Below, one piece after another: positions 23,205 to 51,602 of a stretch of 64,000 nucleotides of DNA. Every line of letters starts with the position of its first letter. Position 1 is the stretch's first letter. The DNA is from Conexibacter woesei Iso977N (lineage in GTDB: Bacteria; Actinomycetota; Thermoleophilia; Solirubrobacterales; Solirubrobacteraceae): NCBI RefSeq assembly GCF_000424625.1, contig NZ_AUKG01000001.1:1054001-1118000 (forward strand), given 5' to 3'. The notes under the pieces were generated by a model. The model was not told where the DNA came from. It saw only the letters and a program-made list of their open reading frames with translations, and did no database searches. The position numbers were made by a program, and so were the translations under genes.

Positions 23205-24223
<1,019 letters not shown>

Positions 24224-24231
24224 CTGGCGCG

Positions 24232-35710: not shown

Positions 35711-36738
35711 GCCGGGGCGTCCAGCCCCACGGCGGCGAGCACCTGGCGCGCGCGCATCGCGGTCGTGTTGGCCCGCGCCCAGGCCAGGGCGCCGGCGCGC
35801 AGCGCCGCGTACTCGTCGTCGTCCATGGCGTTGAGACGGTCCAGGAGCGCGCGCGCATCGGTGTAGCTCACGGAGTTCGTGGCGTCGAGGCCGAACGGCG
35901 CGCTCAGCGCGGGCTTGTCGCCGAGGTCGCGGAAGCACGGCACGCAGCCCTGCGCGGCGATCTCGTAGTGGCGCAGCGTCTCCCACCCGGCCTTGCGCAT
36001 CGTCACGCAGAACTTCGACGCGCGCATGTCGTCGTAGTAGTCCTGCTCGCGCGTGAAGTGGTACTTGCCGGCCTCGCCGGCGTCGAGCAGCGCGGCGACC
36101 TCGGGGTCGACCGTGTGGGTCGCGAACAGCTTCGTCTTGGGCTCGTCGCCGGTGGCCAGCGCGTCCTCGGGGATCGAGAAACCGATCGGGGTGACGTGGC
36201 GCAGCAGGCGCCGCACCGCGACGCGCTCGGGCAGCAGGCCGAAGTAGCGGACACGCGCCGTGATCGGCGCCAGCTCGCGCTTGAAGAACGCGTCGACACG
36301 GCCGTGCGCGCGGGGCAGCGGCCAGGGGCGCATCTGCTTCCACCACGACGGGCCGTAGGGGTACATCACGGGCCCGTCGCCGCCGTCGAGCGCGACGATC
36401 CTCGTGCCGTTGGCGCGCAGCGTGCGCAGGTGCGGGCGCAGCTGCACCCACCAGGCCCAGTGCTGCCAGATGTCGCCCAGGACGATCAGGTCGAACTCCC
36501 CGCGCAGCGCGCGGATCAGCGGCGCGTCGCGGTCGACCGGGAGGTCCGGCAGGCGGTCGAAGAGCGTGAAGCCGCGGCCGTACAGCGCGGCGCGGTACTC
36601 GGGGTCCAGCCCGGCGTAGAGGGGGTCGCGCTTGGGCACGTCGACCACGTCGGCGCCGAGCAGCGACTTGAGCCCGTGCAGCACGCCGTCGGCGAGGTAG
36701 TCCTCGCTGCCTGAGTTGAGGTAGAGCACCTGCGGCAT
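35707..36738 (-). CDS. Glycosyltransferase-like protein, possible GT-B
   Basis: This is a 343-aa soluble protein. The N-terminal half (QVLYLNSGSEDYLADGVLHGL, FDLIVLGDIWQHWAWW, IVALDGGDGPVMY) looks like a Rossmann fold. The C-terminal half has ASKFCVTMRKAGWETLRHYEIAAQGCVPCF, close in style to the donor site of exostosin-like and spore-coat GT-B proteins, in which E-x-x-A-x-G-x-x-P sits near the nucleotide. No EX7E is present, so the family is uncertain. It is the first gene of the seven-gene operon, with TAGCCT 9 nt before its ATG. Confidence 0.65.
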   Translation of the reverse strand: MPQVLYLNSGSEDYLADGVLHGLKSLLGADVVDVPKRDPLYAGLDPEYRAALYGRGFTLFDRLPDLPVDRDAPLIRALRGEFDLIVLGDIWQHWAWWVQLRPHLRTLRANGTRIVALDGGDGPVMYPYGPSWWKQMRPWPLPRAHGRVDAFFKRELAPITARVRYFGLLPERVAVRRLLRHVTPIGFSIPEDALATGDEPKTKLFATHTVDPEVAALLDAGEAGKYHFTREQDYYDDMRASKFCVTMRKAGWETLRHYEIAAQGCVPCFRDLGDKPALSAPFGLDATNSVSYTDARALLDRLNAMDDDEYAALRAGALAWARANTTAMRARQVLAAVGLDAPA

Positions 36739-36747
36739 CCGGCCGAC

Positions 36748-36792
36748 AGGCTACGGGCGACCGCGGTCCTTCCGTCCGGCGCCCTCTAGACT
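36748..36792. promoter_or_regulatory. Divergent leaderless -10 boxes in the 63-bp gap
   Basis: On the minus strand TAGCCT (36753-36748) lies 9 nt before the ATG at 36738. On the plus strand TAGACT (36787-36792) lies 9 nt before the GTG at 36802. No Shine-Dalgarno sequence is visible in either gap, and no TTGACA-like -35 is clear. Confidence 0.5.
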
Positions 36793-36801
36793 GTCGCGTT
36801 C

Positions 36802-38601
36802 GTGGTGTTGTCCAAGCTCTCTGCGGCGTGGCGGGAACCCGACGCCGCCGCGGCCGGAGTCCCGGCCCGTCCACGCCTCCTCCCGGTCACCCGGCTCGCC
36901 CGGATCGCGCTCGTGCTGATCCTGGCGTTCACGTTCGCGCGCGGCGCGCTGTGGGCGACCACGACCCCGAACTTCTGGGGGCCGGACGAGGACTACCACA
37001 TGATGTACGTGGACACCGTCGGCCACGACCACCGGCTGATCACGCCGTCCAAGCCGCTGTACTCCAACGAGTACAGCCGGACGCTGGACTACACCGGCTT
37101 CAACTTCTACGGCGGCCACCCGCGCACCGCCTTCGGCGGCGACCCGAAGTTCAACCTGCACCGGCTCGCGGCGCTGCCCGAGTCCCAGCGCGAGAAGGTC
37201 GCGACGGGCCGCGGCATCGGCGTGATCCACGCGCCGCTGTACTACCTGGCGGGCGGCGCGGTCGACTTCGCGCTCGGCCCCAAGGCGATGCCGACGCGCC
37301 TGTTCTGGGTGCGGATGGTCAGCGGCGTCTTCGGCGTCCTGGCCGTCTACGCCACGTGGCTGCTGGCCTCGCTGTTCTTCGCCGCCGAGGCCGCGGCGCT
37401 GGCCGCCGCGCTGATCGTCGCGCTGCAGCCGATGCTCAGCTACCTCTCGGGGCTGGTCAACAACGACACCGCGGTGGTGTCGACGAGCGTGCTCGTGCTC
37501 GCGTTCGCGGTCTTCATCACCAAGTCGAGACCCCGGGTCCAGCAGGGCATGTGGCTGGGCGGCGCGCTGGCGCTCGCGCTGGCGACGAAGTCGACCGCCT
37601 TGGCGATGATCCCGGTCGCCGGGCTCGCCTACCTGCTCCAGGGCGCGACGCACGGGCAGTGGCGCGTGGTCGCGCGCTCGCTGGCGTGGGCGGTCGTGAT
37701 CCCGCTCGTGCTGATCGGGTGGTGGTACATCCGCTCGAAGATCCTGTGGGGGACGTTCACCGGCGAGGTCCACGGCTTCCACGGCCTCGGCCAGCTGCCG
37801 CCCGCGCCGGGCGGCCCGCCGCCGCCCGCGACCCAGCCGGATCCGGCGACGCTGCACGCCTACCTCGGCTCGACCAAGAGGTGGCTGGCGACGGCCTACC
37901 GCACGTTCTGGTTCCACTACATGGAGTACGAGGCGCCGCGCGGGACCTACCGCTACTTCGCGCCGGCGGTCGCCTGTGGCATCGGGATGCTGGCGTACCT
38001 CTACTACTTCTTCGCCAAGCTGCGGACGTGGCGCCTGCCCGACAAGCCGCTGCTGCGGATGACGGTCGTCGCGGTCGCGCCGCTGATCACGTTCATCGGG
38101 CCGCTGTGCCTGCTGGACGTGAGGCGCCAGATCGCCGGCGGCGGCTTCCTGCAGGCGGCCGGCCGCTTCGGCCTGCCGGCCTACCCGGGCCTGGTCGTCG
38201 CCGCGATGGTCGGCCTGTTCTGGCTCGTGCGCCGGCAGCACCACCGCGTGCTCGTCGCGGCCCTGATCTTCGGGGCGGGCTGGGAGTGCTGGACGGGCTA
38301 CCGCTACCACTACCTCCTGCGCTACTTCGGGACGTTCAACCTCAACTTGGGCTTCCACCGGATGGCCTACGACCGGCCGGAGTTCCTCACGGCCACGTTC
38401 ATCTGGGGCATCTTCATCACGACGATCCTGCTCGTCCTGGCGAGCTGCGTGGCGCTGTGGAAGCTCGGCCGCCGCGAGGACCCGGACCGCCCGATCGCGG
38501 CCGCCGAGTCCGGCACCGCCGACGGCGAGCCGGACCCCACGCGCCGGCCCTGGTGGCGCGTGCGCCTGCCGCGCCGCGCGACGCCGGTCCCGGGCGCCTA
38601 G
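36802..38601 (+). CDS. GT-C type membrane glycosyltransferase, DUF2142-like
   Basis: This 599-aa protein has about ten hydrophobic helices. The first periplasmic loop holds NFWGPDEDYHMMYVD; an acidic pair after the first helix is the catalytic hallmark of GT-C enzymes that use polyprenyl-phosphate sugars, and P-D-E-x-x-H is the DUF2142 form. A long loop with a Pro/Gly run (LPPAPGGPPPPATQPDPATL) precedes later helices. It likely modifies the glycan outside the membrane with a sugar supplied by a GT2 polyprenyl synthase. The GTG at 36802 fits the TAGACT box. The stop shares CTAG (38598-38601) with the convergent gene. Confidence 0.8.
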   Translation: MVLSKLSAAWREPDAAAAGVPARPRLLPVTRLARIALVLILAFTFARGALWATTTPNFWGPDEDYHMMYVDTVGHDHRLITPSKPLYSNEYSRTLDYTGFNFYGGHPRTAFGGDPKFNLHRLAALPESQREKVATGRGIGVIHAPLYYLAGGAVDFALGPKAMPTRLFWVRMVSGVFGVLAVYATWLLASLFFAAEAAALAAALIVALQPMLSYLSGLVNNDTAVVSTSVLVLAFAVFITKSRPRVQQGMWLGGALALALATKSTALAMIPVAGLAYLLQGATHGQWRVVARSLAWAVVIPLVLIGWWYIRSKILWGTFTGEVHGFHGLGQLPPAPGGPPPPATQPDPATLHAYLGSTKRWLATAYRTFWFHYMEYEAPRGTYRYFAPAVACGIGMLAYLYYFFAKLRTWRLPDKPLLRMTVVAVAPLITFIGPLCLLDVRRQIAGGGFLQAAGRFGLPAYPGLVVAAMVGLFWLVRRQHHRVLVAALIFGAGWECWTGYRYHYLLRYFGTFNLNLGFHRMAYDRPEFLTATFIWGIFITTILLVLASCVALWKLGRREDPDRPIAAAESGTADGEPDPTRRPWWRVRLPRRATPVPGA

Positions 38602-39773
38602 CTCGTCTGCAGCGCGGCGCGCAGGCCGGACTCGACCTGGGCGGCGGCGTTGGGCCAGGTGCGCTGGGCGGTGAGGGCGAGGCCGGTGGCGGTGCGGTGG
38701 GCGCGGAGGCCGGGATCGTCGAGGAGGTGGTCGATCGCGGTGGCCAGGGCCAGCGGGTCGGGGGGTGCGAGCTCGAGGGCGTCGAGGACGGCGAAGGTCG
38801 TGCGCATCGAGGGGACGTCGAGGTCGACGACGGGCAGGCCGCAGGCGAGCATCTCGGTCGGGACGAGCGACGGGTTGGTGAGCGACAGGACGATGCCGAG
38901 CGTCGCGGTCGCGTACTGCTGCGCGAGCTGCGGCGGGGTCAGCACGCCGAGGTCGCGGTGGGGGAAGGGCGTGGCGATCGGGCGCGACTCGCCGAAGAGG
39001 GCGATGTCGACCGACGGGCGGCGGCGGTGGAGCTCCTCCAGCGCCAGCAGCGCGAGCGGGACCGCGCGGCGGGGCGTCGTCGGGCGCGCGTAGAGCAAGA
39101 TGGTGTTGCCGCTGCGCGCGGCGTTGGCGTTCCTGTAGGTGTCGTGGTCGACGCCGAGGTCGAACGAGGATGCCGTCGACCCGTACATGTCGGTCACCAG
39201 CTCCGCCAGCCACGGCGAGGCGCAGATCGCGTGCAGGCCCTGGCGGTAGGTCCACGCCGCCCACTCGCGCTCGATCGAGGTCGCGTAGAACTCCGGCTCG
39301 TGGTCCTGGACGAGGTAGGCGCGCGCGCCCGCGCCCGGCATCCGCAGGACCGCCGGGACCGTCTGCCAGCCGGTCGCCACCACGACGTCGGCGCCGCCGA
39401 ACGCGCCCGGGTCGCGCAGGCGCCGGACGTCCGCACCGACCGGGCCGAAGAAGTCGATGAACAACGCGCGCAGCGCCGCGTCGTCGGCCTGCCCGGCGTG
39501 GCGGCCCTCCTCGTCGATCAGGAGCAGCTCGAGGCGATGGCCGCGATCCTCCAGCCCGCGCACGAGGTCGGCGATCGTCTTGTGCCCGCCCGAGCCGCGC
39601 CGGAACTGCGGGATGACGAGCGCGACGCGCAGCGCGCCGCCCTCCGCCGCGGCCCGCGCGGCGAGGGGCGCCGCACCGTCGCGCAACGCCTCCAACATGA
39701 ACGGCACCCGCGGTGCCTCCAGCGGCGGCTCCGCGCCGCGCAGCCGCCGCGCGAGCCCCGCGCGCAGGCTCAT
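38598..39773 (-). CDS. WsaF-like rhamnosyltransferase
   Basis: This 391-aa GT-B protein is of the WsaF type. After a variable N-terminus it has VALVIPQFRRGSGGHKTIADLVRGLEDRGH, VVVATGWQTVPAVL, AYLVQDHEPEFYATSIEREWAA, GLHAICASPWLAELV and LLYARPTTPRRAVPLALLAL. The end is GIVLSLTNPSLVPTEMLACGLPVVDLD, the donor-site loop. WsaF of Geobacillus adds beta-1,2-rhamnose in an S-layer glycan. Its sequence closely parallels the C-terminal half of the preceding gene's product, so the two arose by duplication. ATG at 39773 overlaps that gene's TGA (ATGA). Confidence 0.85.
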   Translation of the reverse strand: MSLRAGLARRLRGAEPPLEAPRVPFMLEALRDGAAPLAARAAAEGGALRVALVIPQFRRGSGGHKTIADLVRGLEDRGHRLELLLIDEEGRHAGQADDAALRALFIDFFGPVGADVRRLRDPGAFGGADVVVATGWQTVPAVLRMPGAGARAYLVQDHEPEFYATSIEREWAAWTYRQGLHAICASPWLAELVTDMYGSTASSFDLGVDHDTYRNANAARSGNTILLYARPTTPRRAVPLALLALEELHRRRPSVDIALFGESRPIATPFPHRDLGVLTPPQLAQQYATATLGIVLSLTNPSLVPTEMLACGLPVVDLDVPSMRTTFAVLDALELAPPDPLALATAIDHLLDDPGLRAHRTATGLALTAQRTWPNAAAQVESGLRAALQTS

Positions 39774-41905
39774 GCCCTGCGCAGGCGCAGCGCCTCGCGC
39801 AGGCCCGCCTCGGTCTGGCGCGCCGCGTGGTCCCAGGTGCGCCCCTCGACGAACGCGAGCCCGGCGGCCGAGCGCCGCTTCCACTCGTCCTCGTCGTGCA
39901 GCAGGTGCTCGACCACGTCGGCCATCTTGATCGCGTCCAGCGGGGCGAGCGCGACCGGGCCGTCGGCGCCGAACACGCTCTCGGCGCTCACGCCCGCGAG
40001 GTCGACGCACGGCATCCCGCATGCCAGCATCTCCTGCGGGATCAGCGAGTAGTTGGTCAGCGACAGCACGACGCCGACCGTGCCCTCGTTGTAGAGCTGC
40101 GCGAGCTGGGCGGGCGAGAGCACGCCGAGGTGCTCGTACTCGAACGGCATGTCGATCTCGCGCGTGTCGCCGAACGACAGCACGCGCACGTCCGGCCGCC
40201 GCCGCTTGAGCTCGGCGATCGCCATGATCGCCAGCGGCACAGCGCGCCGCGCGGTCGACGCGCGCCCGTAGAGCACGATCGTGTCGGGCTGCCGGGCGAA
40301 GCCGGTCGGGTGGTAGACGTCGGTGTCGACGCTGAGGTCGAACAGCGACGCGGTCCCGCCGTAGGTGTCGCGCATGATGTCGGCCAGCCACGGCGAGGCG
40401 CAGATGTGGTGCATCCCCATCGTGTAGGTCTCCTGCGCCCACTTCTCCTCGACCGACGTCGCGTAGAACTCGGGCTCGTGGTCGTTGATGAGGTACGCCC
40501 GCGCCCGGACGTCCTGAAGCAGCGCGACCGGGTGCGCCGTCTGCCAGCCGGTGGCCAGCGCGACGTCGGCGCCGTACCACTCGCCGAAGCCCTTGAAGAC
40601 CGGGCCCTCGATCGGCGCGAACCAGTCCTGGATGTCGCGCCGGACGCGCGCGCCGCGCGAGGCGTCCATCAGCCCGACCGGATCGTCGATCCAGTAGGTG
40701 ACGGTGTGGCCCATGCGCTCCAGCCGCGACATGAGGTTGAAGATCGTCGTGTGCCCGCCGGACCCGCGCGAGAACGGCGGGATCACGCACGCGACGTGCA
40801 GCGGCACGTCGACGTCCTGACCGGTCAGCGGCTCCAACAGCGGCGCGGGCCCGCCGCGGCGCTGGTACTCCAGGACCGCCGAGAACACCATGTCGCGCCA
40901 GGCCTTCTTGATGACCTTGCCGGTGATCGGCGGCGGCGCCAGCGCGGCGGCGTCCTCGACCGGGTCGGGCGCGGTCGCGGCGACCGCCGTGCCCTCCAGC
41001 GAGATCCTCTTCTGCACCGGCGCCGGCAGCTTCTCGGCCCGCGACCCGAGCGCGCCGAAGACCTTGCGCGACGTCTGGTGCACGGCCGACCGCGCGGTCC
41101 AGCGCGCCAGCCCCGCGCCGCCGTAGCCGTGCTCGCGCATCCAGGCGCGGTCGGCGGCGACCAGCGCGCGCACGTCGCGCGCCGAGTTGATGTTCAACGG
41201 CTCGACGTGCCCGACCGACGCGCGCAGCCCGCGGTACTCGTCGAAGTAGCGGCGCGCGAACGCGACCGGCGGGTAGTCGTGCGCGTGCAGGACCGCGGCG
41301 TCCGGGTTGTAGGCCTTGGCCCAGCCCGCGGCGAGCATCGCCTGCGCGAAGTGCTGGTCCTCGGAGTACGGGACGTCCGGGAAGCGCAGCGCCGCCCAGC
41401 AGTCGCGGCGGTAGGCGGCGTTGACGTTCGAGAGGAACGCGTCGTCGCCCTCGCGCTGCAGTGACGGCCCGCCGTCCGGCGACGCCTTGGTCGCGAAGTA
41501 CTGGTCCAGCTCGCGCGCGATCATCGGCGACGTGTCGGGGCGCGCGCGGTGCGGGCCGTAGACCGCGCCGACGTCGTCGGCGAGCGCGAAGCCGGCCAGC
41601 AGCGCGTCGGCCCAGCCGGGCAGCGGCGTCGCGTCCTGCGTGATGAAGGCGATGACGTCGCCGCTCACCGACTCGGCGCCGAGGTTGCGCGTGCGGCCGT
41701 GGCCGAACGTCGCCGGGTCGATCTCCATGACCCGGACGCCGGCCGCGGCGCGCGCGATCTCCAGCGACCCGTCGGTCGAGCCCGAGTCGATGACCAGCAC
41801 CTCGTCGACCTGCGGGACGACGGCGGCCAGCAGCTCCTCCAGGAGCTCCGCGCCGTCCTTGACCGGGACGACGACGGAGATCGAACGCGCCGTAGGCGCG
41901 CTCAC
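39770..41905 (-). CDS. Fused GT2 + WsaF-like glycosyltransferase
   Basis: This 711-aa protein has two enzymes in one chain. Residues 8-290 are GT2: ISVVVPVKDGAELLEELL, VLVIDSGSTDGSLEIA, IDPATFGHGRTRNLGAE (typical of rhamnosyltransferases that read nucleotide-Rha), FITQDATPLPGWADALL and VPYSEDQHFAQAMLAAGW. Residues 390-711 are WsaF-like: VACVIPPFSRGSGGHTTIFNL, VALATGWQTAHPVALL, AYLINDHEPEFYATSVEEKWA, VLYGRASTARRAVPLA and VLSLTNYSLIPQEMLACGMPCVDL. WsaF-like proteins fused to GT2 can build a repeat with two rhamnoses. The GTG at 41905 overlaps the coiled-coil gene's TGA (GTGA). Confidence 0.9.
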   Translation of the reverse strand: MSAPTARSISVVVPVKDGAELLEELLAAVVPQVDEVLVIDSGSTDGSLEIARAAAGVRVMEIDPATFGHGRTRNLGAESVSGDVIAFITQDATPLPGWADALLAGFALADDVGAVYGPHRARPDTSPMIARELDQYFATKASPDGGPSLQREGDDAFLSNVNAAYRRDCWAALRFPDVPYSEDQHFAQAMLAAGWAKAYNPDAAVLHAHDYPPVAFARRYFDEYRGLRASVGHVEPLNINSARDVRALVAADRAWMREHGYGGAGLARWTARSAVHQTSRKVFGALGSRAEKLPAPVQKRISLEGTAVAATAPDPVEDAAALAPPPITGKVIKKAWRDMVFSAVLEYQRRGGPAPLLEPLTGQDVDVPLHVACVIPPFSRGSGGHTTIFNLMSRLERMGHTVTYWIDDPVGLMDASRGARVRRDIQDWFAPIEGPVFKGFGEWYGADVALATGWQTAHPVALLQDVRARAYLINDHEPEFYATSVEEKWAQETYTMGMHHICASPWLADIMRDTYGGTASLFDLSVDTDVYHPTGFARQPDTIVLYGRASTARRAVPLAIMAIAELKRRRPDVRVLSFGDTREIDMPFEYEHLGVLSPAQLAQLYNEGTVGVVLSLTNYSLIPQEMLACGMPCVDLAGVSAESVFGADGPVALAPLDAIKMADVVEHLLHDEDEWKRRSAAGLAFVEGRTWDHAARQTEAGLREALRLRRA

Positions 41906-42183
41906 TGCTGACCCGTCAGCTTCCGCTTGGCCTTGCGGACCTTCCACACCACCTGGCGCGAGGAGCGCAGCGCGTTGAGCAGCGGGACCGCCCCCGGCTT
42001 GCGCATCACGCGGTCGAGGTCGATGTGCCAGCGGTCCAGCCAGTACAGCTTCTCCTGGGCCACGGCCAGCTGCGTTGCCGTCGACTGCGCCTGGCGCGCG
42101 AGCTCGGCCTCGAGCTCCGCGACCCGTGCGCGCAGCGCGGCGATCTCCGCTTCGCGCGGGTCCGTCGTCGGCTCTGCGGTCAC
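41902..42183 (-). CDS. Small coiled-coil protein
   Basis: This 93-aa protein contains a heptad-rich helix REAEIAALRARVAELEAELARQAQ (residues 10-33), a second helix with KLYWLDRWHIDLDRVMRK, and a basic tail VWKVRKAKRKLTGQQ. No catalytic motif. It sits between the large GT4/methyltransferase gene and the GT2-WsaF gene, with GTG start and GTGA end overlaps. It may help assemble or measure the glycosyltransferase complex, as coiled coils do in chain-length control, but this is inference. Confidence 0.7.
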   Translation of the reverse strand: MTAEPTTDPREAEIAALRARVAELEAELARQAQSTATQLAVAQEKLYWLDRWHIDLDRVMRKPGAVPLLNALRSSRQVVWKVRKAKRKLTGQQ

Positions 42184-42207: not shown

Positions 42208-45200
42208 TTACGTACGTGCGCTGGCCTCGCCGGCCACGTCGGCCACGACCGCGTAGGCGGGCTGCTTGAGGCGGTCGACCTCGACGTCGCCGGCGCCGTT
42301 GGGGAAGAACACGAAGCCGCGATCGAAGCCGGCCTCCTGGACCAGCTCCAGCGTCACCTCGGGGAACAGCGGGTGCTGGTGGGTCGGGTCCAGCCAGAAG
42401 CCCTTCATCGCGGCGACCGCGTGCGGGTTGACGGTCTCGACGATCAGCCGGCCCCCGGCGCGCAGCGCGTGGCGGGCGGCCAGCAGCAGCTCCTGCAGCG
42501 CCTCGTAGGGCAGGTGCTCGATGACCTGCATCGCGACGACCGCCCCGAGCGAGCCGGCCTCGGCGTTCTTGAGGACCTCGACCGCGTCGGCCTCCTCGAC
42601 GTTCGTGACCCCGTTGACGCGCGCGATCGCCAGCATGCCCGCGTCGGTGTCGACGCCGCGCGCGGCGATCCCGGCCTTGCCGAGCACCTCCAGCAGCTCG
42701 CCGCGGCCGCAGCCGACGTCGAGCACCGGGCCGTGGTCGGCCAGGAGCGGGACGAACGCCTGCTGCAGCGCGGTGATCCGCTCGCGCGAGCCGCGGAAGC
42801 GGTCCTCGAAGCGGCGGTAGGCCTCGGCGGTCCCGGCCGCCTCGACGCCGATGCCCTTCGTGAAGCCCTCGACGGCGCCGGCCTGCGGGTCGGTCCAGCG
42901 CTCGAACGGCTGCTCCATGTACGGCAGTGCGCGCAGCTGGCCGGCGGGCTCGGCGATGCTCAGCAGCTCCGCGAGCTGGTCGGCCTGGACGGCGAGCTGG
43001 TGCTCGACGCCGACCAGCCAGCGCTCGTGGTCGGCGAGGCTCGCCCGGACCCGGCGCAGCGCGGCCATCGTCTGCGTGCGCTCCTCGCGCAGCTCGACCG
43101 CGGCGTGCTCGGAGACCTCACCGGAGATCCGGTCGAGCTCCGTGTTGAGCGCGTCGATCGAGCGCAGCAGGCCCTCGTCGATCGACTTCTGGCGTGCCAG
43201 CCACGGCGACATGAAGCGCCCGCTGACGTTGCGGACCGGCTTCTTGACCGCGGCGGCGCGGCCGGCCGGGACCGGCAGCCCACGGCCGATCCGGTCGCCG
43301 GTGTGGTGCAGGTCGGGCAGCGCCAGCCCGGGCGCGGGCTCGGCCCCGGCCGACAGCCCGTCGTAGACCACCTGCAGGCGCCTGCGCATCGCGTCGCCCG
43401 CGACGTGCGGCGCGTGGTGGGCCAACATGTAGGCCTTGCCCTTGGCGCCGCGCTCGCGCGCCTCCTCGGGGTGCTCGAAGACGTGGCGCATCAGCGACGC
43501 GGCGTGGTCGAGGTCGGGCTCGGCCCAGCGCGCGTCGGCCGGGTAGGGGTGCGCGCCGCGCCCGACGGTCGTCCAGCCGTGGTCGACGAGGTAGGAGTTC
43601 TCGTCGTTCATGAACTCCAGCGTGCCGCCGTAGCGCGTGGCGATCACCGGCTTGCCGAGCAGCATCGCCTCGGCGGGCGTCAGCCCGAAGCCCTCGGACC
43701 GGTGCAGCGATAGGTAGCAGTCGCAGTTGTCGAGCATGCCGTTCTTGTGATCGGCCGACACGTACTCGTCGATGATCGTGATGTCGGGATGGTCGGCCGC
43801 GGCCAGCAGCGTGCGTTCGTGGTGCTCGGGCAGGTTCTCGGCGTTGATGCACTTCAACACCAACTTGGCGCCCTCGCCCGGCCTGAAGGCCTGCTTGAAC
43901 GCCTCGATGTGCCCGACCGGGTTCTTGCGCGCCGCGGTCGAGTGGTAGTCGTAGATGTAGAGGAAGACGTAGCCGTCGTCCGGGAAGCCGACGGCCTCGC
44001 GCGAGTACGGGCGCAGGCGCGGCATCGTCACCGGCATCGGGACCTTGTTGACCGGGACCGGGCTGTGCGGCGCGACCGCCTGGAAGATGTGGTCGGTCGC
44101 GACCCAGACCTCGTCGATGTACTCGAACGCCTCGTGCCAGTCGGGCGGGAACGCGTCGACGATCTCCCACCACCACAGCGCGATCGTGTGGCGGTCCTTG
44201 AAGAAGCGGTCGTCGGCCTCGCGCGCGAAGACGGGGATCGTGTCCCCGTTCATGCAGATGATGTTGATGGGGTAGGGCGCCTCGTCCGGGCCCGTGAACG
44301 TGAACTCCGCCTCCTGGCGGCAGGGCGGGATCAGCGCGCCCTGGACCGGCAGCGCCGGGACCGTCGCGGCGTCGAGGCCGCCGATCAGCAGCCGCGCCGC
44401 CTCGCCGAGGCCCAGCTCGGAGCGGAAGAAGCCCGCGACGTTGGCGCCCCACGGCAGCGGCTCGGCCTGGGCGGGCGCGTCGGTGGCGAACTCCTCCGCC
44501 GGCAGCGAGCGCGCCGGGATGTGATGGTCCCTGGTCCCGTAGACGTGCAGCCAGCCCGCGTAGCCGGGGCCGTCGGGGCCGTCGAGGTGCGGGTAGGCGG
44601 TCCGGAGGTCGTCGCGCGACTCCCAGATCGCGAGGTGGTAGCGCGTCAGCCCGACCGCGGCGCCCCTCTCGGCCGGCTGGTCGAGCCAGTCGTCGAGCTC
44701 GCGCGTGCCCTCCAGCGTCCACGGCGCGTGGGTCAGCGCGCCCTCGGCGTGCGCGCGCCGGATCAGGTCGCGCAGCGTCTCGTCGAGGGGGCGGCCGTGC
44801 CAGTCGGTGGTGTACGGCGGGCCCGGCGCCGCGGGCCAGGCCGCGAGCAGCTCCTCGGCGTGGCGGCGCAGCAGCGCGGCCAGCGCGGGCGTGCGCGACA
44901 GGCGGACGCGGTTCTGCTTCCACGGCGCCTCCGGCGACTGGGCGTCGAAGCCCGAGAGGTCGAGCAGCGCGAGGCGGTCGCCGCCCGCGGTCAGCGCGTC
45001 GGGGTCGTCGCCGGCGACCTCGCGCAGCGGCAGGTTCCAGTAGGCGACGCCGGTCCCGCGGTCGGCGAGCATCCGGACGTCGGCGCCCGGCGCGGTCGCG
45101 AAGCGGTCGAGATGGCGCTGGGCGGAGTCGGCGGTCAGCTCGGGCTCGCGCGCCTCGACGTCGGTGATCCCGGACTCCGGCCAGCCGTCGAGCAGCGCGT

Positions 45201-45696
45201 CGAGCGCCGCGCCCGGCCGCACGGCGAAGACGCGGCGGTTGACCGAGCCGGCGGCGTCGACCCACGCGGCCGGCGGCACCAGGTCCTCGTCCTCCTCCAG
45301 GCGCCCGTCGGCCATCGGGACCAGCACGACGCCCGCCTCGGCGGCCGCGTCGAGCAGCGCGGTCAGCGGCGCGGTCACGCGCGTCTCGGCTCCGAGCGCA
45401 ACAACCGGCGCGCCCGGCTCGTTGGAGGCGGCATGAGCGAGCAGCAGCGGCAGCAGGACGCCGTCGCGATGGGGCGCCTCGGTCGTCGCCACGCGCGGCC
45501 ACCAGGAGCCGTCGCCGACGAGCCCGTCGAGCGTCAGGACCTCGGCCCCGTCGACGTGCGGCGGGTCCTCGGGCCCGGCGAAGAGCGCGAGCAGCGCGGC
45601 GTCCGGGTGGTGCTCGCGCAACGTGCGCGCGAGCACGCGCACCGCGCCGGTGCGCGCGCGGTCGTAGATCGTCACTGCGGTGAAGGCGACGGTCAT
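42208..45696 (-). CDS. Multidomain GT4 glycosyltransferase with coiled coil and C-terminal methyltransferase (WbdD-like layout)
   Basis: This 1162-aa protein has four parts. Residues 1-about 420 start VAFTAVTIYDRARTGAVRVLARTL and look like the hexosyltransferase-like domain seen before such enzymes. About 430-780 is GT4: GANVAGFFRSELGLGEAARLL, FLYIYDYHSTAARKNPVGHIEAF and LSLHRSEGFGLTPAEAMLLGKPV (EX7E). About 860-960 is helical and probably coiled coil: SIDEGLLRSIDALNTELDRI and RVRASLADHERWLVGVEHQLAVQ. About 990-1162 is a methyltransferase: VLDVGCGRGELLEVLGKAG, VVAMQVIEHLPYEAL and WLDPTHQHPLFPEVTLEL. Known WbdD caps chains beside Wzm/Wzt; here the divergent neighbour is Wzt, so a terminating methylation role is plausible. 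Confidence 0.85.
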   Translation of the reverse strand: MTVAFTAVTIYDRARTGAVRVLARTLREHHPDAALLALFAGPEDPPHVDGAEVLTLDGLVGDGSWWPRVATTEAPHRDGVLLPLLLAHAASNEPGAPVVALGAETRVTAPLTALLDAAAEAGVVLVPMADGRLEEDEDLVPPAAWVDAAGSVNRRVFAVRPGAALDALLDGWPESGITDVEAREPELTADSAQRHLDRFATAPGADVRMLADRGTGVAYWNLPLREVAGDDPDALTAGGDRLALLDLSGFDAQSPEAPWKQNRVRLSRTPALAALLRRHAEELLAAWPAAPGPPYTTDWHGRPLDETLRDLIRRAHAEGALTHAPWTLEGTRELDDWLDQPAERGAAVGLTRYHLAIWESRDDLRTAYPHLDGPDGPGYAGWLHVYGTRDHHIPARSLPAEEFATDAPAQAEPLPWGANVAGFFRSELGLGEAARLLIGGLDAATVPALPVQGALIPPCRQEAEFTFTGPDEAPYPINIICMNGDTIPVFAREADDRFFKDRHTIALWWWEIVDAFPPDWHEAFEYIDEVWVATDHIFQAVAPHSPVPVNKVPMPVTMPRLRPYSREAVGFPDDGYVFLYIYDYHSTAARKNPVGHIEAFKQAFRPGEGAKLVLKCINAENLPEHHERTLLAAADHPDITIIDEYVSADHKNGMLDNCDCYLSLHRSEGFGLTPAEAMLLGKPVIATRYGGTLEFMNDENSYLVDHGWTTVGRGAHPYPADARWAEPDLDHAASLMRHVFEHPEEARERGAKGKAYMLAHHAPHVAGDAMRRRLQVVYDGLSAGAEPAPGLALPDLHHTGDRIGRGLPVPAGRAAAVKKPVRNVSGRFMSPWLARQKSIDEGLLRSIDALNTELDRISGEVSEHAAVELREERTQTMAALRRVRASLADHERWLVGVEHQLAVQADQLAELLSIAEPAGQLRALPYMEQPFERWTDPQAGAVEGFTKGIGVEAAGTAEAYRRFEDRFRGSRERITALQQAFVPLLADHGPVLDVGCGRGELLEVLGKAGIAARGVDTDAGMLAIARVNGVTNVEEADAVEVLKNAEAGSLGAVVAMQVIEHLPYEALQELLLAARHALRAGGRLIVETVNPHAVAAMKGFWLDPTHQHPLFPEVTLELVQEAGFDRGFVFFPNGAGDVEVDRLKQPAYAVVADVAGEASART

Positions 45697-45705
45697 CCCG
45701 CGAGG

Positions 45706-45711
45706 ACCGTA
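45706..45711 (-). promoter_or_regulatory. -10 box TACGGT of the 1162-aa gene
   Basis: On the minus strand TACGGT lies 9 nt before the ATG at 45696. The gap to the divergent wzt ATG at 45723 is only 26 nt, so both promoters overlap and the -35 regions must lie within coding sequence. The plus side has only an imperfect TACAAG (45710-45715) 7 nt before its ATG. Confidence 0.45.
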
Positions 45712-45722
45712 CAAGGTGCGCA

Positions 45723-47003
45723 ATGGCTACCATCGTGCGCCTGACCAGCACTGACGTCACCGTCGCCGAGGCGCCTCGGCCGGCGGCTGGGGCCGAGCCG
45801 GCCATCGTCGTGGACGGTGTTGGCAAGACCTTCCGGCTGCCGCAACAGCAGTACTCGACGCTCAAGGAGCGCGTGCTGCACCCCTTGCGATCGCAGGTCT
45901 ACGACGAGCTGCGGGCGCTGCAGGACGTCTCGGTCTCGATCAACAAGGGCGAGTTCTTCGGCATCGTCGGGCGCAACGGCTCCGGCAAGTCGACGCTGCT
46001 GAAGTGCCTGGCGGGGATCTACGACCTCGACAGGGGCGCGATCGAGATCACCGGCCGCCTGTCGCCGTTCATCGAGCTGGGCGTCGGGTTCAACCCGGAC
46101 CTGACCGCGCGCGACAACGTGATCATCAACGCGATCATGCTCGGCATGTCGCGCAGGCAGGCGCGCGAGCGGTTCGACGCCGTCGTCGAGTTCGCCGAGC
46201 TCGAGGACTTCCTCGACCTCAAGCTGAAGAACTACTCGTCGGGCATGAACGTGCGCCTGGCCTTCGCGACAGCGATCCAGGTCGACACCGAGCTGCTGCT
46301 GGTCGACGAGGTGCTCGCCGTCGGCGACGCCGCCTTCCAGCAGAAGTGCTTCGAGGAGTTCCAGCGGATGAAGGACGCGGGGCGGACGATCGTGTTCGTC
46401 ACCCACGACATGTCCGCCGTCGAGCGCTTCTGCGATCGCGCGATGCTGCTGGAGAAGGGCAGGGTCGTCGACATCGGCGACCCGCTGCAGATCTCGCGCG
46501 CCTACAACGAGCTGAACTTCGGCCGCGTCGCGGAGGTCATCGAGGCCGAGGAGGAGTCGGGCCGCTACGGCGACCGCCGCATCGCCGAGGTGACGCGCGC
46601 GTGGTTCGAGAACGTCAACGGCGAGCCGGTCGTCACGCTCGCCCAGGGCGAGCTGATGCGCGTGCGCTTCGAGATCGACGTGCACGAGCGCCTCGTCGAC
46701 CCGGTCTTCGCCGTCACGCTGCGCAACGAGGCCCACCACACGATCATGGTCGAGCGCACCGACTGGCGCCACGGCTCGACCGGCGTCTTCGAGGCCGGCG
46801 AGAAGGCGTTCATCACCTTCCAGTTCGACAACTGGCTCGCGCCCAGCCGCTACACCGCGTCGCCGTCGATCGCGCGCGGCGGGACCGGCGAGGCGTTCCT
46901 CGACGTCCGCGAGGACCTCGCGTCGATCGTCGTCTCCAACGTCGGCGAGCGCACCGGTGGCGTCGTCGACCTGCCCCACCAAGTCGAGATCAACCGCCTG
47001 TGA
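45723..47003 (+). CDS. wzt: ABC transporter ATPase for polysaccharide export, Wzt type
   Basis: This 426-aa protein powers export of an undecaprenyl-PP-linked glycan. The ATPase spans residues 26-250: Walker A GIVGRNGSGKSTLLKCLAG, Q/D-loop region LSPFIELGVGFNPDLTARDNV, signature NYSSGMNVRLAFATAI (Wzt form of LSGGQ), Walker B LLLVDEVLAVGD and switch His FVTHDMSAVERFCD. The tail (about 280-426) has the Wzt carbohydrate-binding type beta-sandwich: PVVTLAQGELMRVRFEIDVHER, PVFAVTLRNEAHHTIM, FQFDNWLAPSRYTASPS. Such tails recognise the chain end, often its terminal modification, linking with the divergent methyltransferase. The ATG at 45723 starts 26 nt from that gene. Confidence 0.93.
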   Translation: MATIVRLTSTDVTVAEAPRPAAGAEPAIVVDGVGKTFRLPQQQYSTLKERVLHPLRSQVYDELRALQDVSVSINKGEFFGIVGRNGSGKSTLLKCLAGIYDLDRGAIEITGRLSPFIELGVGFNPDLTARDNVIINAIMLGMSRRQARERFDAVVEFAELEDFLDLKLKNYSSGMNVRLAFATAIQVDTELLLVDEVLAVGDAAFQQKCFEEFQRMKDAGRTIVFVTHDMSAVERFCDRAMLLEKGRVVDIGDPLQISRAYNELNFGRVAEVIEAEEESGRYGDRRIAEVTRAWFENVNGEPVVTLAQGELMRVRFEIDVHERLVDPVFAVTLRNEAHHTIMVERTDWRHGSTGVFEAGEKAFITFQFDNWLAPSRYTASPSIARGGTGEAFLDVREDLASIVVSNVGERTGGVVDLPHQVEINRL

Positions 47004-47851
47004 GCGTCACGACCCGCTACACCGCCGGCCGCCGCCGCGGCCTGTCCGCCTCCGCGTTCGGCGACGACTTCCGCCGCTTCTGGAACCTGACGTACACGCT
47101 GGCCGCGACCGAGTTCAAGTTGAAGTACTTCGGCTCGGCGCTCGGCTACGTCTGGTCGCTGATGCGCCCGGTGATGCTCTTCGGCGTCCTCTACGTCGTG
47201 TTCACCTACGTCGTCAGGGTCGGCACCAGAATCGACTTCTACGCGCCGTACCTGCTGACCTCGATCGTCATGTGGACGTTCTTCGCCGAGGCGACGGCGG
47301 GCTCGGTGCAGTCGCTGATCGGGCGCGAGTCGCTGCTGCGCAAGATGCGCTTCCCGCGGATCGTCGTGCCGCTGTCGGTGACGCTGACGTCGCTGTTCAA
47401 CCTCGGGACCAACCTCTTCGCGGTCTTCATCTTCGCGATCCTCTCCGGCGTGCGGCCGCACTGGCTGTGGCTGGAGATCCCGTTGTTGTTGGTGTTGCTC
47501 GCGGCGCTGGCGACCGGCTGGTCGATGCTGCTCAGCGCGCTCTACGTCCGCTACCGCGACGTCCAGCCGATCTGGGAGGTCTTCGCGCAGGCGCTGTTCT
47601 ACGCCTCGGCGGTCCTCTACGCGGTGGAGACCGTCGCGCATCCCTACCAGCGCTGGTTGCTGTGCAACCCGCTGGCGGCGATCTTCACGCAGATGCGTCA
47701 CTGCTTCCTGGACCCGACCGCGCCGACGACCGCGCAGCTGATGGGCTCCCAGGTCTACCTGCTGATCCCGGTCGGGATCATCGTCTTCATGTTCCTGCTG
47801 GGCCTCTGGGTGTTCAACCGCGAGGCCCCGAAGATCGCCGAGCGCCTCTAG
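47000..47851 (+). CDS. wzm: ABC-2 transporter permease for polysaccharide export, Wzm type
   Basis: This 283-aa permease partners with Wzt. It has an N-terminal amphipathic segment ([31 protein letters not shown]) typical of Wzm, six hydrophobic helices, and the cytoplasmic loop [19 protein letters not shown] between TM2 and TM3, the docking region for the ATPase. Near the end are [22 protein letters not shown] and [20 protein letters not shown], also typical. GTG at 47000 overlaps the wzt TGA (GTGA). Its TAG stop shares CTAG (47848-47851) with the convergent rfbH-like gene. Confidence 0.93.
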
Positions 47852-49197
47852 GAGGCGCGCCGGGCGTGGAACGCGCCCTCGGCGATCTCGTGCAGGACGT
47901 CGACGACGTAGTCGACGTGGGCGTCGGACAGGCCCGGGTAGACGCCGATCCAGAACACGCACTCCATGACGAAGTCCGCGTTGTCGAGCGTGCCGACGAC
48001 GCGGTGCTCGATGTCCTTGTAGGCGGGCTGGCGCAGCAGGTTGCCGGCGAACAGCAGGCGCGTGGCGATCCCGCGCTCCTCGAGGTGACGCACGACCGCG
48101 TTGCGGTCGACGGGCGCCTCGCGGCGGACGGCGATCGGGAAGCCGAACCAGGACGGGTCGGAGTTCGGCGTCGCCTCGGGCAGGATGAACAGCTCGTCGA
48201 GGTCGGACAGCCCCTCGGTCAGCCGCGCGAAGTTGCGCTTGCGGGCGTCGATGAAGCCGGGCAGCTTGTCGAGCTGCGCGACGCCGACCGCGGCCTGCAT
48301 GTCGGTCAGCTTCAGGTTGTAGCCGATCTCCGAGTACACGTACTTGTGGTCGTAGCCGTGCGGCAGCTCGCCGAACTGCTGGTTGAAGCGCTTGCCGCAG
48401 GTGTCCTCCTTGCCCGGCTCGCACCAGCAGTCGCGGCCCCAGTCGCGGAACGACTCGGCCAGGACCTTCATCTTGCCCTTGTTCGTGATGACCGCGCCGC
48501 CCTCGCCCATCGTGATGTGGTGGGCGGGGTAGAAGGACGTCGTCGCGAAGTCGCCCCAGTGGCCGACGTGCCTGCCGTCGTAGGTCGCGCCGACCGCGTC
48601 GCAGCAGTCCTCGACCAGCCACAGGTCGTTGTCCTGACAGAACTTCGAGACCGTCGCGAGGTCGAACGGGTTGCCCAGCGTGTGGGCGATCATCACCGCG
48701 CGCGTCTTGGGCGACAGCGCGTCCTGCAGGTGGGTGACGTCGATGTTGTAGGTCGGGACGTCGACGTCGAGGAAGACGGGGATCGCGCCGTACTGGATCG
48801 CCGGGTTGACGGTCGTCGGGAAGCCGGTGGCGACCGTGATGACCTCGTCGCCGGGCTTGATCCGCTTGGAGCCGAGCTTCTTGGACGTCAGCGCGCTGAA
48901 CGCGACGAGGTTGGCCGAGGAGCCCGAGTTGACCAGGATCGCGTGACGGCGGCCGAAGACCTCCTTGGCGAAGCGGCGCTCGAACTGGTGGGCGAAGCGG
49001 CCCGTCGTCAGCCAGAAGTCGAGCGAGCTGTCGACGAGGTGCGTCAGGTCCTCGGCGTCGAACACGCGGCCGGACACCGGGACGTTGGTCGTCCCGGCCT
49101 CGAACGGCCGGTCCGGGAACGCTTCGGCGTGGTACTCGCGGGTCAGCTGGAGGATCTGGGCACGGAGCGCATCCGCGCGCGATTCGGGCTGGTCCAT
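47848..49197 (-). CDS. rfbH: CDP-4-keto-6-deoxyglucose 3-dehydratase, RfbH/E1 (PMP and [2Fe-2S] enzyme)
   Basis: This 449-aa enzyme removes the 3-OH from CDP-4-keto-6-deoxy-D-glucose. It is DegT-fold, but the PLP lysine is replaced by His226 in [16 protein letters not shown], as in E1/ColD-type dehydratases that use PMP. Four cysteines, C199 (EDCCDA), C257, C259 (DCWCEPG) and C267 (DTCGKRF), fit exactly the C-X57-C-X1-C-X7-C pattern of the E1 [2Fe-2S] cluster. [14 protein letters not shown] is the substrate and dimer loop. No E3-type reductase gene (RfbI/AscD) is visible in the window. TACCGT lies 10 nt before the ATG. It is separated from rfbF and rfbG by about 11 kb of glycan genes. Confidence 0.95.
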
Positions 49198-49207
49198 AGG
49201 CGCCGAA

Positions 49208-49213
49208 ACGGTA
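49208..49213 (-). promoter_or_regulatory. -10 box TACCGT of rfbH
   Basis: On the minus strand TACCGT lies 10 nt before the ATG at 49197. The divergent GT-C-like gene begins beyond it (49281 or 49305), with a TACAGT box at 49255-49260. Confidence 0.4.
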
Positions 49214-49304
49214 GCGCGAACGCCCCGCGTGACGCCTGTGCCGGATGGCCTCGGTACAGTTTCGCGACGGGCGCCGACCGGTGAGGACGGCGCGCGACCT
49301 CCGT

Positions 49305-51602
49305 ATGGCGACACACGCAAGCGAGCATCCGCACGCGGCCACCGCGCCCGCGCGCGCCCCCGGACGAGCAGCCACGCTGCTGCGCCACCCCTGGATCGTC
49401 GAGGGGGCGTGGACCGTCCTGGCGATGGCGATCGGCCTGCTGATCGCCACGCTCGTCTACCACCTGTGGGACGCGAAGCTCCACGTCCCGTTCAACGGCT
49501 CGGGCGACGGCGCGCTGAACCTGCTGCTGGCCAAGGACCTCATCGACCACGGCTGGTACTTCACCAACCACGCGCTCGGCGCGCCGTCGGGCCAGGAGCT
49601 CTACGACTACTCGGCCTTCGACGCCGACAACCTCCAGGTCATCGGGATGAAGATCCTGACGCTGGGGATCTCCGAGCCCGTCGCGCTGGTCAACGTCTAC
49701 TTCATCCTCGGCTTCGCCTTCACGTCGGCGGCCGGGTACCTGGGCTCACGCGCGCTGGGCTTCAGCCGCGGCGTCGCGCTGCTGGGCTCCGCGGTCTTCA
49801 CCGCGCTGCCCTACCACTTCGAGCGCGGCGCGTCGCACCTCTTCCTCGGCGAGTACTTCGTCATCCCGGGCGCGGTCTGGCTGATCGTCACCGCGCTGCA
49901 GGGCCAGCCGATCCTGGTCGCGCGCGAGGGCGTGACGGGCTGGAGGCGCTGGCTGACGCCGCGCACGTTCGCGGTCGCGTTCGTCTGCCTGCTGGCCGGC
50001 GGCTGCGGCCTGTACTACGCGGTCTTCACGATCCTGCTGGTCGGCCTGGCCGCCGTGCTGCGCGCGATCGCGACGCGCTCGTGGCGCTCCGGCGTGCCCG
50101 GGGTCCTCGCCGCGGCCGCGATCGGCGTCGTCCTGATCGTCAACATCTCGCCGGCGCTGGCCTACCAGCACAAGCACGGCAAGGACGAGCCGGTCGCCAA
50201 GCGCTTCGCGTTCGAGAGCGAGCTCTACGCCACGTCGCTGACCCAGATGCTGCTGCCGATCGGCAACCACCGGATCGGCGCGTTCGCCAAGCTCACCGAC
50301 CGGCACACGACCACGACGCCGGTCAGGGGCGAGATGGGCCAGCCGCTGGGGCTGCTCGGCGCGCTGGGCTTCATCGGCCTGCTGCTGGTCGGCTCCTCGC
50401 GGCTCCTGCGCGGCCCGCCCGAGCGGCCGGATCGCTTCACCGGGCTGCTCGGCGCCGCGACGGTCGGCGGCGTGCTGGCGTTCCTGTGGGCGACGTTCGG
50501 CGGCATCGCGTCGTTCTTCGCCTACGTGATCTCGCCGCAGATCCGCGCGTGGTCGCGGCTGACGCCGTTCATCGCGTTCTTCGCGCTGCTCGCGGTCCTG
50601 GTCGTCGCCGAGCGCCTGCGCGGGCGGATCATCGCTTCGGGCGGGCTCGGCCGCCGGGTCGCCGCCGGGGCCGTGCTCGCGGCCGTCGCCGTGCTCGGCG
50701 TGCTGGACCAGACGTCGCCCAAGGACGAGCCCGTCTACGCGTCGACGATCGGCTCGTGGGCCAACAACCAGCACTTCGTCTCCGCGCTCGAGCAGAGCGT
50801 GCCGAAGGGCTCGATGATCCTGCAGCTGCCGTTCCACGCGTTCCCGGAGGCCGGCGACGTCAACGGCATGCAGGACTACGACCTGCTCCAGGGCTACCTG
50901 CACTCCAGGGACCTGCGCTGGAGCTACGGCGCGATGAAGGGCCGCCCGGCCGACTGGACCGACGAGGCCGAGCAGCAGCCGCTGCCGTGGGTCCTGAGGG
51001 CCGCGGTCGCCGCGGGCTTCGCGGGCGTCTACATCGACCGCGCCGGCTACGCCGACCACGGCGTCGCGGCCGAGAAGACCGTGCGCAGGGTGCTCGGCGG
51101 CGCCCCGGCGGTCACGGGCGACGACTGGGGCCGCCTGGTCTTCTACAGCGGGCTGGCGCTGCGCGCCAGGCAGCAGCAGACGATGACCCCGGCCCAGCGC
51201 GCCGCGCTCGGCAACGCGCTGGTCCATCCCGTCGACCTCGAGTACGGCGACGGCGTCTACGACGAGGAGCCCGGCGCCGCCGGCGCGCCGCCGTTCCGCT
51301 GGATCGGGCCCGACGCGACGATCGACGTCGTCAACCCGGGGTCGCAGGCGACGGGCAGCTTCGAGGCGACCGCCGCCGCGGGCGAGGGGTCGATGACCGT
51401 CACCGCGCCCGGCCAGGCGCCGACCGTCGTGCGCTTCACCAACGGCAGGGAGAAGGTCAGGGTCCCGCTGACGCTGCCCGCGCACGGCACCGTGAGGCTG
51501 ACCTTCCACGCCGACGTGCCGAGGCAGGGCGTCCCGCCGGAGACGCGCGACCTGCGGGTCCAGCTGTTCGGCGCCCAGTTCGCCGCCGACGGGGCGAGCT
51601 AG
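49305..51602 (+). CDS. Large polytopic membrane protein, YfhO/GT-C-like
   Basis: This 765-aa protein has about 12 hydrophobic helices in residues 30-470, then a long extracytoplasmic C-terminal domain (about 480-765). The first loop has [20 protein letters not shown], with the Asp expected of GT-C fold glycosyltransferases. The C-terminal part ends in a beta-rich domain ([36 protein letters not shown]). It is unlike the DUF2142 protein but shares the general layout of bacterial GT-C enzymes. Start is uncertain: ATG 49305, GTG 49281 and ATG 49245 are in frame. A TACAGT box at 49255-49260 argues against 49245. Confidence 0.75.

What the first reader, a model, noticed from the sequence alone, without database searches (positions are those of the whole stretch)
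42208..47851. A 1162-aa GT4/coiled-coil/methyltransferase divergent from Wzt-Wzm: possible chain-terminating machine of an ABC-exported glycan
The protein joins an N-terminal transferase-like part, a GT4, a coiled coil and a C-terminal methyltransferase, and its neighbour Wzt has a long carbohydrate-binding tail. In E. coli O8/O9a, WbdD caps the chain by methylation and a coiled coil sets chain length; Wzt then recognises the cap. The same logic, with a GT4 fused in, may operate here in a Gram-positive-type actinobacterium. A further small coiled-coil protein (41902-42183) lies in the same operon.
Basis: partly seen in the sequence, partly recalled or inferred. Interest (0 to 1): 0.7.

Follow-up and report, generated by a model that had tools for sequence, protein, structure and literature searches.

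The report
Fused glycan-extending and chain-capping enzyme
In a soil-type actinobacterium one protein joins a sugar-adding enzyme, a long helical spacer and a methyl-adding enzyme like the one that ends E. coli O8 surface sugar chains, which suggests that it builds a surface sugar chain and then stops it at a preferred length.

Summary
On the minus strand, 42208-45696 encodes a 1162-aa protein divergent from wzt-wzm. It holds an N-terminal GT-A domain (glycogenin/GT8 type) that has lost its DxD motif, an intact GT4, a helix of about 96 residues and a C-terminal methyltransferase. The analogy can be sharpened: the methyltransferase is of E. coli O8 WbdD type (40% identity; 23 of 23 invariant residues kept), not O9a type (no kinase; 14 bits). 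Among the E. coli proteins tested, the GT4 is nearest to O8 WbdA, and the Wzt tail belongs to the family of known cap-binding domains. Best reading: a one-chain polymerase-spacer-terminator, domain order reversed relative to Klebsiella O7 and O12. Related loci carry at least four different C-terminal modules on one chassis. Against the full story: Wzt tails do not co-vary with terminator type, 0 of 7 Aquifex cap-pocket residues are kept, and the window's own heptad signal is weak. A Gram-positive precedent exists (WsaE). Verdict: new variant of a known kind; capping likely, Wzt reading this cap unproven. The small coiled-coil gene seems to belong to another conserved block.

The parts
42208..45696 (-). 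1162-aa fusion protein (GT-A-like / GT4 / helix / methyltransferase)
44485..45696 (-). N-terminal domain, residues 1-404: GT-A fold of glycogenin/GT8 type, DxD motif lost
   Evidence: AlphaFold2 mean pLDDT 88; VIA-align Z 16.5 to 8cvz_J, rmsd 4.1 over 230 residues; Foldseek E 1.6e-6 to 4ueg_A; 37 of 52 homologues carry DxD at this site, the window has VVALGAETRV
43351..44454 (-). GT4 (GT-B) domain, residues 415-782, EGFGLTPAE (EX7E) intact
   Evidence: PF00534; VIA-align Z 34.2 to 3oy2_A; conserved residues in alignment A1
42952..43239 (-). continuous helix, residues 820-915, candidate coiled-coil spacer (up to about 14 nm if fully helical)
   Evidence: pLDDT 53-71; heptad tests
42238..42831 (-). 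class I methyltransferase, residues 956-1153, E. coli O8 WbdD type
   Evidence: 40% over 215 aa, about 1e-37; 23 of 23 invariant residues; 3dli, 1.5e-59
45723..47003 (+). Wzt, ATP-binding subunit with C-terminal carbohydrate-binding tail
46563..46973 (+). Wzt_C domain (residues 281-417)
   Evidence: PF14524 4.7e-19; the family profile finds 6o14, 8dky, 7k2t, 8dku, 2r5o, 5hno
47006..47851 (+). Wzm, membrane subunit (start inferred)
41902..42183 (-). 93-aa small protein; probably goes with the next gene rather than with the fusion protein
   Evidence: in the 20-kb stretches L109, L114, L124 and L127 it stands beside GT2-WsaF with no relative of the fusion protein's GT4
39770..41947 (-). 725-aa GT2 plus WsaF-like GT, downstream on the same strand
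38598..39800 (-). WsaF-like GT (start not fixed)

Best explanation
The protein is a one-chain polymerase-spacer-terminator for a glycan exported by the adjacent Wzm-Wzt. The GT4 (with partner GTs encoded downstream, and an N-terminal GT-A domain that is now probably non-catalytic) extends a lipid-linked chain at its non-reducing end. The C-terminal methyltransferase, held up to about 14 nm away by the helix, O-methylates the terminal sugar directly, as WbdD of E. coli O8 does, and so stops growth at a preferred length. The Wzt tail then probably binds the finished end. Shown here: gene, domains, intact GT4 and MTase motifs, O8-type homology, predicted helix, linkage to wzm-wzt. Inferred: that methylation is terminal, that the helix sets length, that Wzt reads the methyl group.
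For: MTase 40% identical over 215 aa to O8 WbdD (E about 1e-37; profile 203 bits), O9 WbdD only 14 bits; all 23 invariant residues of a 16-sequence MTase set are kept in O8 WbdD. Among the E. coli proteins tested the GT4's best match is O8 WbdA (33% over 153 aa, 2.4e-19; O9 WbdA 1.6e-5), and the tail profile scores O8 Wzt 51 bits, O9 Wzt 24 bits. The tail profile also finds the solved tails of Aquifex (1.8e-6), 2r5o (3.7e-5) and 5hno (1.6e-4). Helix 820-915, heptads across the family. The A-type MTase lies in the same fetched stretch as wzt or wzm in 23 of 30 loci, and within about 20 kb on the same contig in 3 more (L035, L038, L056). 18 of 19 Wzt genes beside it that can be read to their end carry tails of 160-204 aa. 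[quoted passage not shown]
Against: Wzt tails do not co-vary with terminator type. The cap pocket of Aquifex is not conserved, 0 of 7. One class relative (L068, the same contig as L172) and one Chloroflexi MAG locus (L156) have the MTase beside a tail-less Wzt. All 14 loci that have a Wzt but not this MTase also hold a tailed Wzt (L045 a tail-less one as well), so the tail is not specific to it. The window's heptad signal alone is weak. The MTase family is broad and includes archaeal 3dli. No glycan structure is known.
Confidence: 0.55

Rival explanations
1. Decorating enzyme: the methyltransferase methylates an internal sugar of each repeat as the chain grows; the helix merely tethers it to the GT4 and has no ruler role; chain end and export are set by something else.
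For: The GT and MTase families occur in many phyla and settings. Some loci hold a second, unrelated MTase near the polymerase (G031, G029, G331). Tail and terminator type do not co-vary.
Against: The closest characterised relative compared, O8 WbdD, methylates sugar hydroxyls directly (passage of PMC3482155) as a chain terminator (that it is terminal in O8 is recalled; stated for the methyl-capping WbdD of Klebsiella O5 in a passage of PMC11231755); strong link to wzm-wzt; a heptad linker in both fused and separate-gene forms.
Confidence: 0.25
2. It caps, but Wzt does not read this cap: the tail recognises the glycan itself or another modification (for instance the product of the B-type methyltransferase), and the methyl group serves only to stop growth. 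This overlaps with the best explanation except for its last step.
For: Same-genus genomes G031 (A-type fused) and G010 (B-type fused) have Wzt tails 78% identical; G031 and G029 also carry a stand-alone B-type MTase near the polymerase. A weak, non-significant trend of tail similarity with B presence, p=0.11. 0 of 7 Aquifex pocket residues kept.
Against: The solved homologues of the tail bind chain ends (Aquifex: passages of PMC9445017; 2r5o and 5hno: recalled). B does not track significantly either. The window genome has no B-type MTase at E<=1e-25.
Confidence: 0.3
3. Scaffold: the helix oligomerises the GTs into a membrane-proximal complex; the methyltransferase is a remnant or acts on another substrate.
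For: The N-terminal GT-A domain is already degenerate, so modules of this protein do decay; in L062 the MTase lacks its SAM motif in the sequence held.
Against: The window's MTase keeps every residue invariant in the 16-sequence set (it is one of them) and matches O8 WbdD at all 23; it is predicted with pLDDT above 90 over most of its length.
Confidence: 0.1

Closest known systems
WbdD / WbdA / Wzm-Wzt of E. coli O8
   Same: Same methyltransferase family (40%), helical segment next to it with significant heptads, related GT4, Wzt with a carbohydrate-binding tail
   Different: In E. coli polymerase and terminator are two proteins and the MTase is N-terminal to the coiled coil; here they are one chain, GT first and MTase last, with an extra GT-A domain
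WbdD of E. coli O9a
   Same: Methyltransferase joined to a coiled coil, beside a Wzt with a tail
   Different: O9a has a kinase and a different MTase (14 bits); neither is found here
ORF6 of Klebsiella O7 and WbbB of O12 (PMC11231755, abstract and passages)
   Same: Terminator and GT modules in one protein with a coiled coil
   Different: There the terminator is N-terminal and the GTs C-terminal; other terminator enzymes; other GT families (partly recalled)
WsaE of Geobacillus stearothermophilus (PMC2943079, passages)
   Same: Gram-positive, methyltransferase fused to GTs, cluster with wzm-wzt, glycan with a terminal O-methyl sugar; the window also has WsaF-like GTs
   Different: MTase is N-terminal; methylation in vitro was independent of chain length, and the passages seen mention no coiled coil; sequence not compared here
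Wzm-Wzt of Aquifex aeolicus (PMC9445017, passages)
   Same: Homologous tail and NBD
   Different: The residues named as holding the 3-O-methyl sugar are not conserved (0 of 7)

Membership tests
E. coli O8-type WbdD terminator | methyltransferase of the O8 family with its invariant residues | tested here: met
E. coli O8-type WbdD terminator | coiled coil between terminator and polymerase | tested here: inconclusive
   helix 820-915; window heptads 28 of 300 shuffles as high; 15 of 24 fused homologues significant; oligomer not tested
E. coli O8-type WbdD terminator | C-terminal membrane-binding and polymerase-recruiting region after the coiled coil | tested here: not met
   the chain ends 9 residues after the last strand of the MTase; the GT4 is fused at the other end of the helix instead
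E. coli O8-type WbdD terminator | methylates the non-reducing terminal sugar and stops growth | not testable with these tools
   no glycan or enzyme data
E. coli O9a-type WbdD | kinase domain beside the methyltransferase | tested here: not met
   no kinase family in Pfam and no domain between helix and MTase in the model; MTase 14 bits
WsaE | N-terminal MTase followed by two GT modules | tested here: not met
   order here is GT-A, GT4, helix, MTase
WsaE | sequence homology of the MTase | not tested
   WsaE sequence was not in hand
Wzm-Wzt with carbohydrate-binding tail | Wzt_C domain | tested here: met
   PF14524 4.7e-19, 69.2 bits over a cut-off of 30.4
Wzm-Wzt with carbohydrate-binding tail | residues that bind a 3-O-methyl cap in Aquifex (I299, L300, N313, T346, A348, H350, W362) | tested here: not met
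   V, T, R, S, S, A, V in the window, by profile alignment
Wzm-Wzt with carbohydrate-binding tail | tail co-varies with the terminator | tested here: inconclusive
   no co-variation found (p=0.82; p=0.84 and 0.11), but some A-type loci also carry a B-type MTase and A and B may make the same product

The most novel reading that the evidence does not exclude
In Thermoleophilia a common chassis (GT-A, GT4, coiled coil) carries interchangeable chain-terminating modules - at least two unrelated methyltransferases, a third unassigned module and a second GT-A transferase - so that related species swap the enzyme that ends the chain while keeping polymerase and spacer, giving a natural series of one-protein polymerase-ruler-terminators outside the Gram-negative O antigens.
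Probability: 0.35. Interest if true: 0.7.

Novelty: new variant of a known kind. Interest (0 to 1): 0.5.

Why it matters
How bacteria set polysaccharide length in ABC-exported systems is known mainly from a few Gram-negative O antigens. A single protein with polymerase, spacer and terminator outside those bacteria, with several alternative last modules on one chassis, would let the ruler idea be tested by changing only the helix or only the last module, and would offer new cap-writing enzymes for glycan engineering.

Tried and rejected
Rejected: an O9a-like methyl-phosphate cap (no kinase found, MTase 14 bits). Rejected: treating the 93-aa protein as part of the terminator; it stands beside GT2-WsaF in four stretches without a relative of the fusion protein's GT4 (L109, L114, L124, L127). 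Rejected: using the presence of a Wzt tail as evidence for capping by this MTase, because Wzt_C occurs in 66 of 78 genomes of the family while the GT4 relative was found in 43 of 146, and tailed Wzt stand in loci without this MTase.

Led nowhere: tree and pairwise tests of tail against terminator type. The seeming clean swap between G031 and G010 is confounded, since G031 also has a stand-alone B-type MTase. A PDB search with the window tail alone gave only a chance hit; the family profile was needed. PDB searches with the B and C modules named no close relative. WbdD chains were not among the 60 of 260 rows shown for the MTase profile. No WsaE sequence was in hand. The promoter scan around the divergent starts found nothing, but expected nothing either. 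Literature searches touching this architecture in actinobacteria listed nothing whose title or abstract start describes it; that covers only the held open-access library.

Rows dropped or unread: not every GT4 hit was fetched (55 stretches were). L070 was left out of the tail trees (Wzt start cut off), L077 of the pair test (very long branch), L060 and L079 of the tail count (Wzt cut off at the contig end). One fused linker had no Pro-free 28-mer. A5 was a trial alignment and was not folded. Two of the first heptad controls gave no score for lack of a usable 28-mer; one search used other controls. One search stopped with a script error after the DxD table had been printed.

Full report
What is there. 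The window belongs to a genome of 5.7 Mb whose family, as grouped by the tool, includes G072 and G031. I equate G072 with Solirubrobacter taibaiensis (L131; contig of 113,784 bases in both) and G031 with Svornostia abyssi (L129; contigs of 5,061,484 and 5,061,584 bases, and the same ORF lengths). Both are Solirubrobacterales, Thermoleophilia. On the minus strand, 42208-45696 encodes a 1162-aa protein (ATG at 45696; the open frame runs on to a TTG at 45723). Its start lies 26 bp from the first ATG of the wzt frame on the other strand; no sigma-70-like promoter was found there, and none was expected by chance. Downstream on the same strand follow a 93-aa protein (24 bp away), a 725-aa GT2-WsaF-like protein that overlaps it, and a further WsaF-like GT.

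Domains. (1) Residues 1-404: no Pfam family in the N-terminal 399 residues, but a GT-A fold (pLDDT 88), best Z 16.5 to glycogenin with rmsd 4.1 over 230 residues. Of 52 homologues 37 carry a DxD motif at the usual place; the window has VVALGAETRV, and the other 15 homologues lack it or have a gap there, so this domain is probably not catalytic in the window. (2) Residues 415-782 are a GT4, Z 34.2 to 3oy2_A, with the EGFGLTPAE motif intact. (3) Residues 820-915 form one helix (pLDDT 53-71). By a simple heptad test the window scores 28 of 300 shuffles as high, not significant, whereas the E. coli O8 and O9 coiled coils score 0 of 300. Across the family 15 of 24 scored fused linkers (one more unscored), 4 of 5 with the B-type MTase, 1 of 2 with the C module and 7 of 11 separate MTases reach p<0.05, against 1 of 10 control stretches (rows are related, so not independent). 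(4) Residues 956-1153 are a class I methyltransferase; best PDB match of its family profile is 3dli of Archaeoglobus, 1.5e-59.

The O8 connection. I read the clusters of E. coli IAI1 and HS, whose wzt genes RefSeq names O8 and O9 family. The window's MTase is 40% identical to O8 WbdD over 215 aa (E about 1e-37; 203 bits with the family profile), while O9 WbdD scores 14 bits. The GT4 finds O8 WbdA at 2.4e-19 and O9 WbdA at 1.6e-5. The Wzt-tail profile scores 51 bits with O8 Wzt and 24 bits with O9 Wzt; apart from the named genes and their own reading frames, the 324 background ORFs score below 2 bits with either profile. All 23 residues invariant in a 16-sequence MTase set are kept in O8 WbdD. 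According to a passage of PMC3482155, the O8 enzyme lacks the kinase and methylates sugar hydroxyls directly.

Linkage and modularity. A GT4 relative occurs in 43 of 146 genomes of the family at E<=1e-50, and in 48 of 232 of the order and 52 of 399 drawn from the class at E<=1e-60. I fetched 55 stretches around such hits (not all hits) and added the window. Of these 56 loci, 30 hold the A-type MTase (22 fused behind the GT4, 8 in another frame or gene), 5 a different methyltransferase fused in the same place (B; Methyltransf_11), 2 a third unassigned module (C) and 2 a second GT-A domain (D); in 17 none of these was recognised, several of them cut by contig ends. wzt or wzm lies in the same stretch in 23 of the 30 A-type loci; in 3 more a wzt lies on the same contig within about 20 kb (L035, L038, L056); of the other four, one genome has its wzt on another contig (L057), two loci belong to one genome without a wzt match at 1e-55 (L067, L087), and one is a 5-kb contig (L088). 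The combination reaches other phyla: A-type MTase genes stand directly beside a GT-A/GT4 gene in a Chloroflexi MAG (L156) and an Actinomycetes MAG (L185), and some 5 kb away in Pimelobacter (L159).

Test of the export half. If Wzt reads the cap, tail sequence should follow terminator type. It does not: 30 Wzt, 435 pairs, tail similarity after allowing for NBD similarity is no higher within type (difference -0.013, permutation p=0.82). On quick trees of 31 Wzt the labels change 8 times for the tail (as low in 55 of 200 shuffles) and 7 times for the NBD (11 of 200); only the two D loci, of one genus, group together in both. In 20 genomes scanned for the B-type MTase, neither presence of A (p=0.84) nor of B (p=0.11) predicts tail similarity. 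The test is weakened because G031, G029 and G331 carry both A and B and because A and B may make the same product. The Aquifex pocket that holds the 3-O-methyl sugar (residues from passages of PMC9445017; chain index is paper number plus one) maps to V, T, R, S, S, A, V in the window, 0 of 7 kept. So the tail is of the right family, but its ligand is unknown. Two loci with the MTase have a tail-less Wzt (L068 and L156), against 18 of 19 with tails in the counted set; but all 14 loci without this MTase also hold a tailed Wzt.

What is known. Terminators of ABC-exported O antigens hold a coiled coil that separates terminator and polymerase, and the modules may sit in one or several proteins (abstract and passages of PMC11231755). 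WbdD's coiled coil keeps its active sites about 200 A from the polymerase, and insertions or truncations shift chain length (passage of PMC5082667). [quoted passage not shown] PMC3898925). The window protein combines the O8-type MTase with the single-chain plan, in reverse domain order. My searches listed no paper that describes it; they cover only open-access text.

Sugars. Genes in the window encode a GDP-mannose 4,6-dehydratase (23205-24173, PDB 1rpn 9.8e-127) beside a second member of that family, a CDP-glucose 4,6-dehydratase above its cut-off and RfbH above its cut-off. GDP-linked 6-deoxy sugars would fit an O8- or Aquifex-like chain, but the window also holds Wzx- and Wzy-like genes, so which sugars enter this glycan is open.

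Conclusion. An informative new variant of a known kind: a polymerase-spacer-terminator fusion of E. coli O8 type in an actinobacterium. Terminal capping is the likeliest role (0.55 for the whole mechanism); its coupling to Wzt is not supported by the co-variation tests and remains to be tested at the bench. Interest 0.5.

Noticed in passing
window 47848-49320 (-), 51615-53417 (+), 61013-62293 (+): RfbH (727 bits, above its cut-off), CDP-glucose 4,6-dehydratase (450 bits, above its cut-off) and an acetolactate-synthase-like TPP enzyme (best PDB 8rph) lie in one region: possibly a pathway to a branched CDP-3,6-dideoxy sugar such as yersiniose (pathway recalled).
   Followed up: partly
window 22168-23142 (+) and 23205-24173 (-): Two adjacent GDP-mannose dehydratase family genes; the first is the weaker match and might be a reductase to GDP-D-rhamnose, though its best PDB match is still a dehydratase.
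   Followed up: partly
L109, L114, L124, L127: A block of wzt, wzm, the 93-aa protein and GT2-WsaF occurs without a relative of the GT4-helix-MTase protein in the stretch; the role of the 93-aa protein is unknown.
   Followed up: no
L050:8892-14171 and L081:3389-6412: The terminator slot holds a second GT-A transferase behind the helix instead of a methyltransferase.
   Followed up: no
L127:3441-6872: A 1143-aa open frame with a weak MTase match near its N-terminus and a weak GT2 match later, i.e. WsaE-like order, near a Wzt with tail.
   Followed up: no
L062:8471-11782: The methyltransferase of this relative lacks its SAM-binding motif in the sequence held (alignment A1).
   Followed up: no
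G000:C1:717161-717556 (L104): The window's genome has a second Wzt with a Wzt_C tail; no A-type MTase was found in the 20 kb around it.
   Followed up: partly
window 6514-8715 (-), 24199-25674 (+), 34199-36874 (-): Wzy_C-like and two Wzx-like genes: a Wzx/Wzy pathway seems to share this region with the ABC pathway.
   Followed up: no
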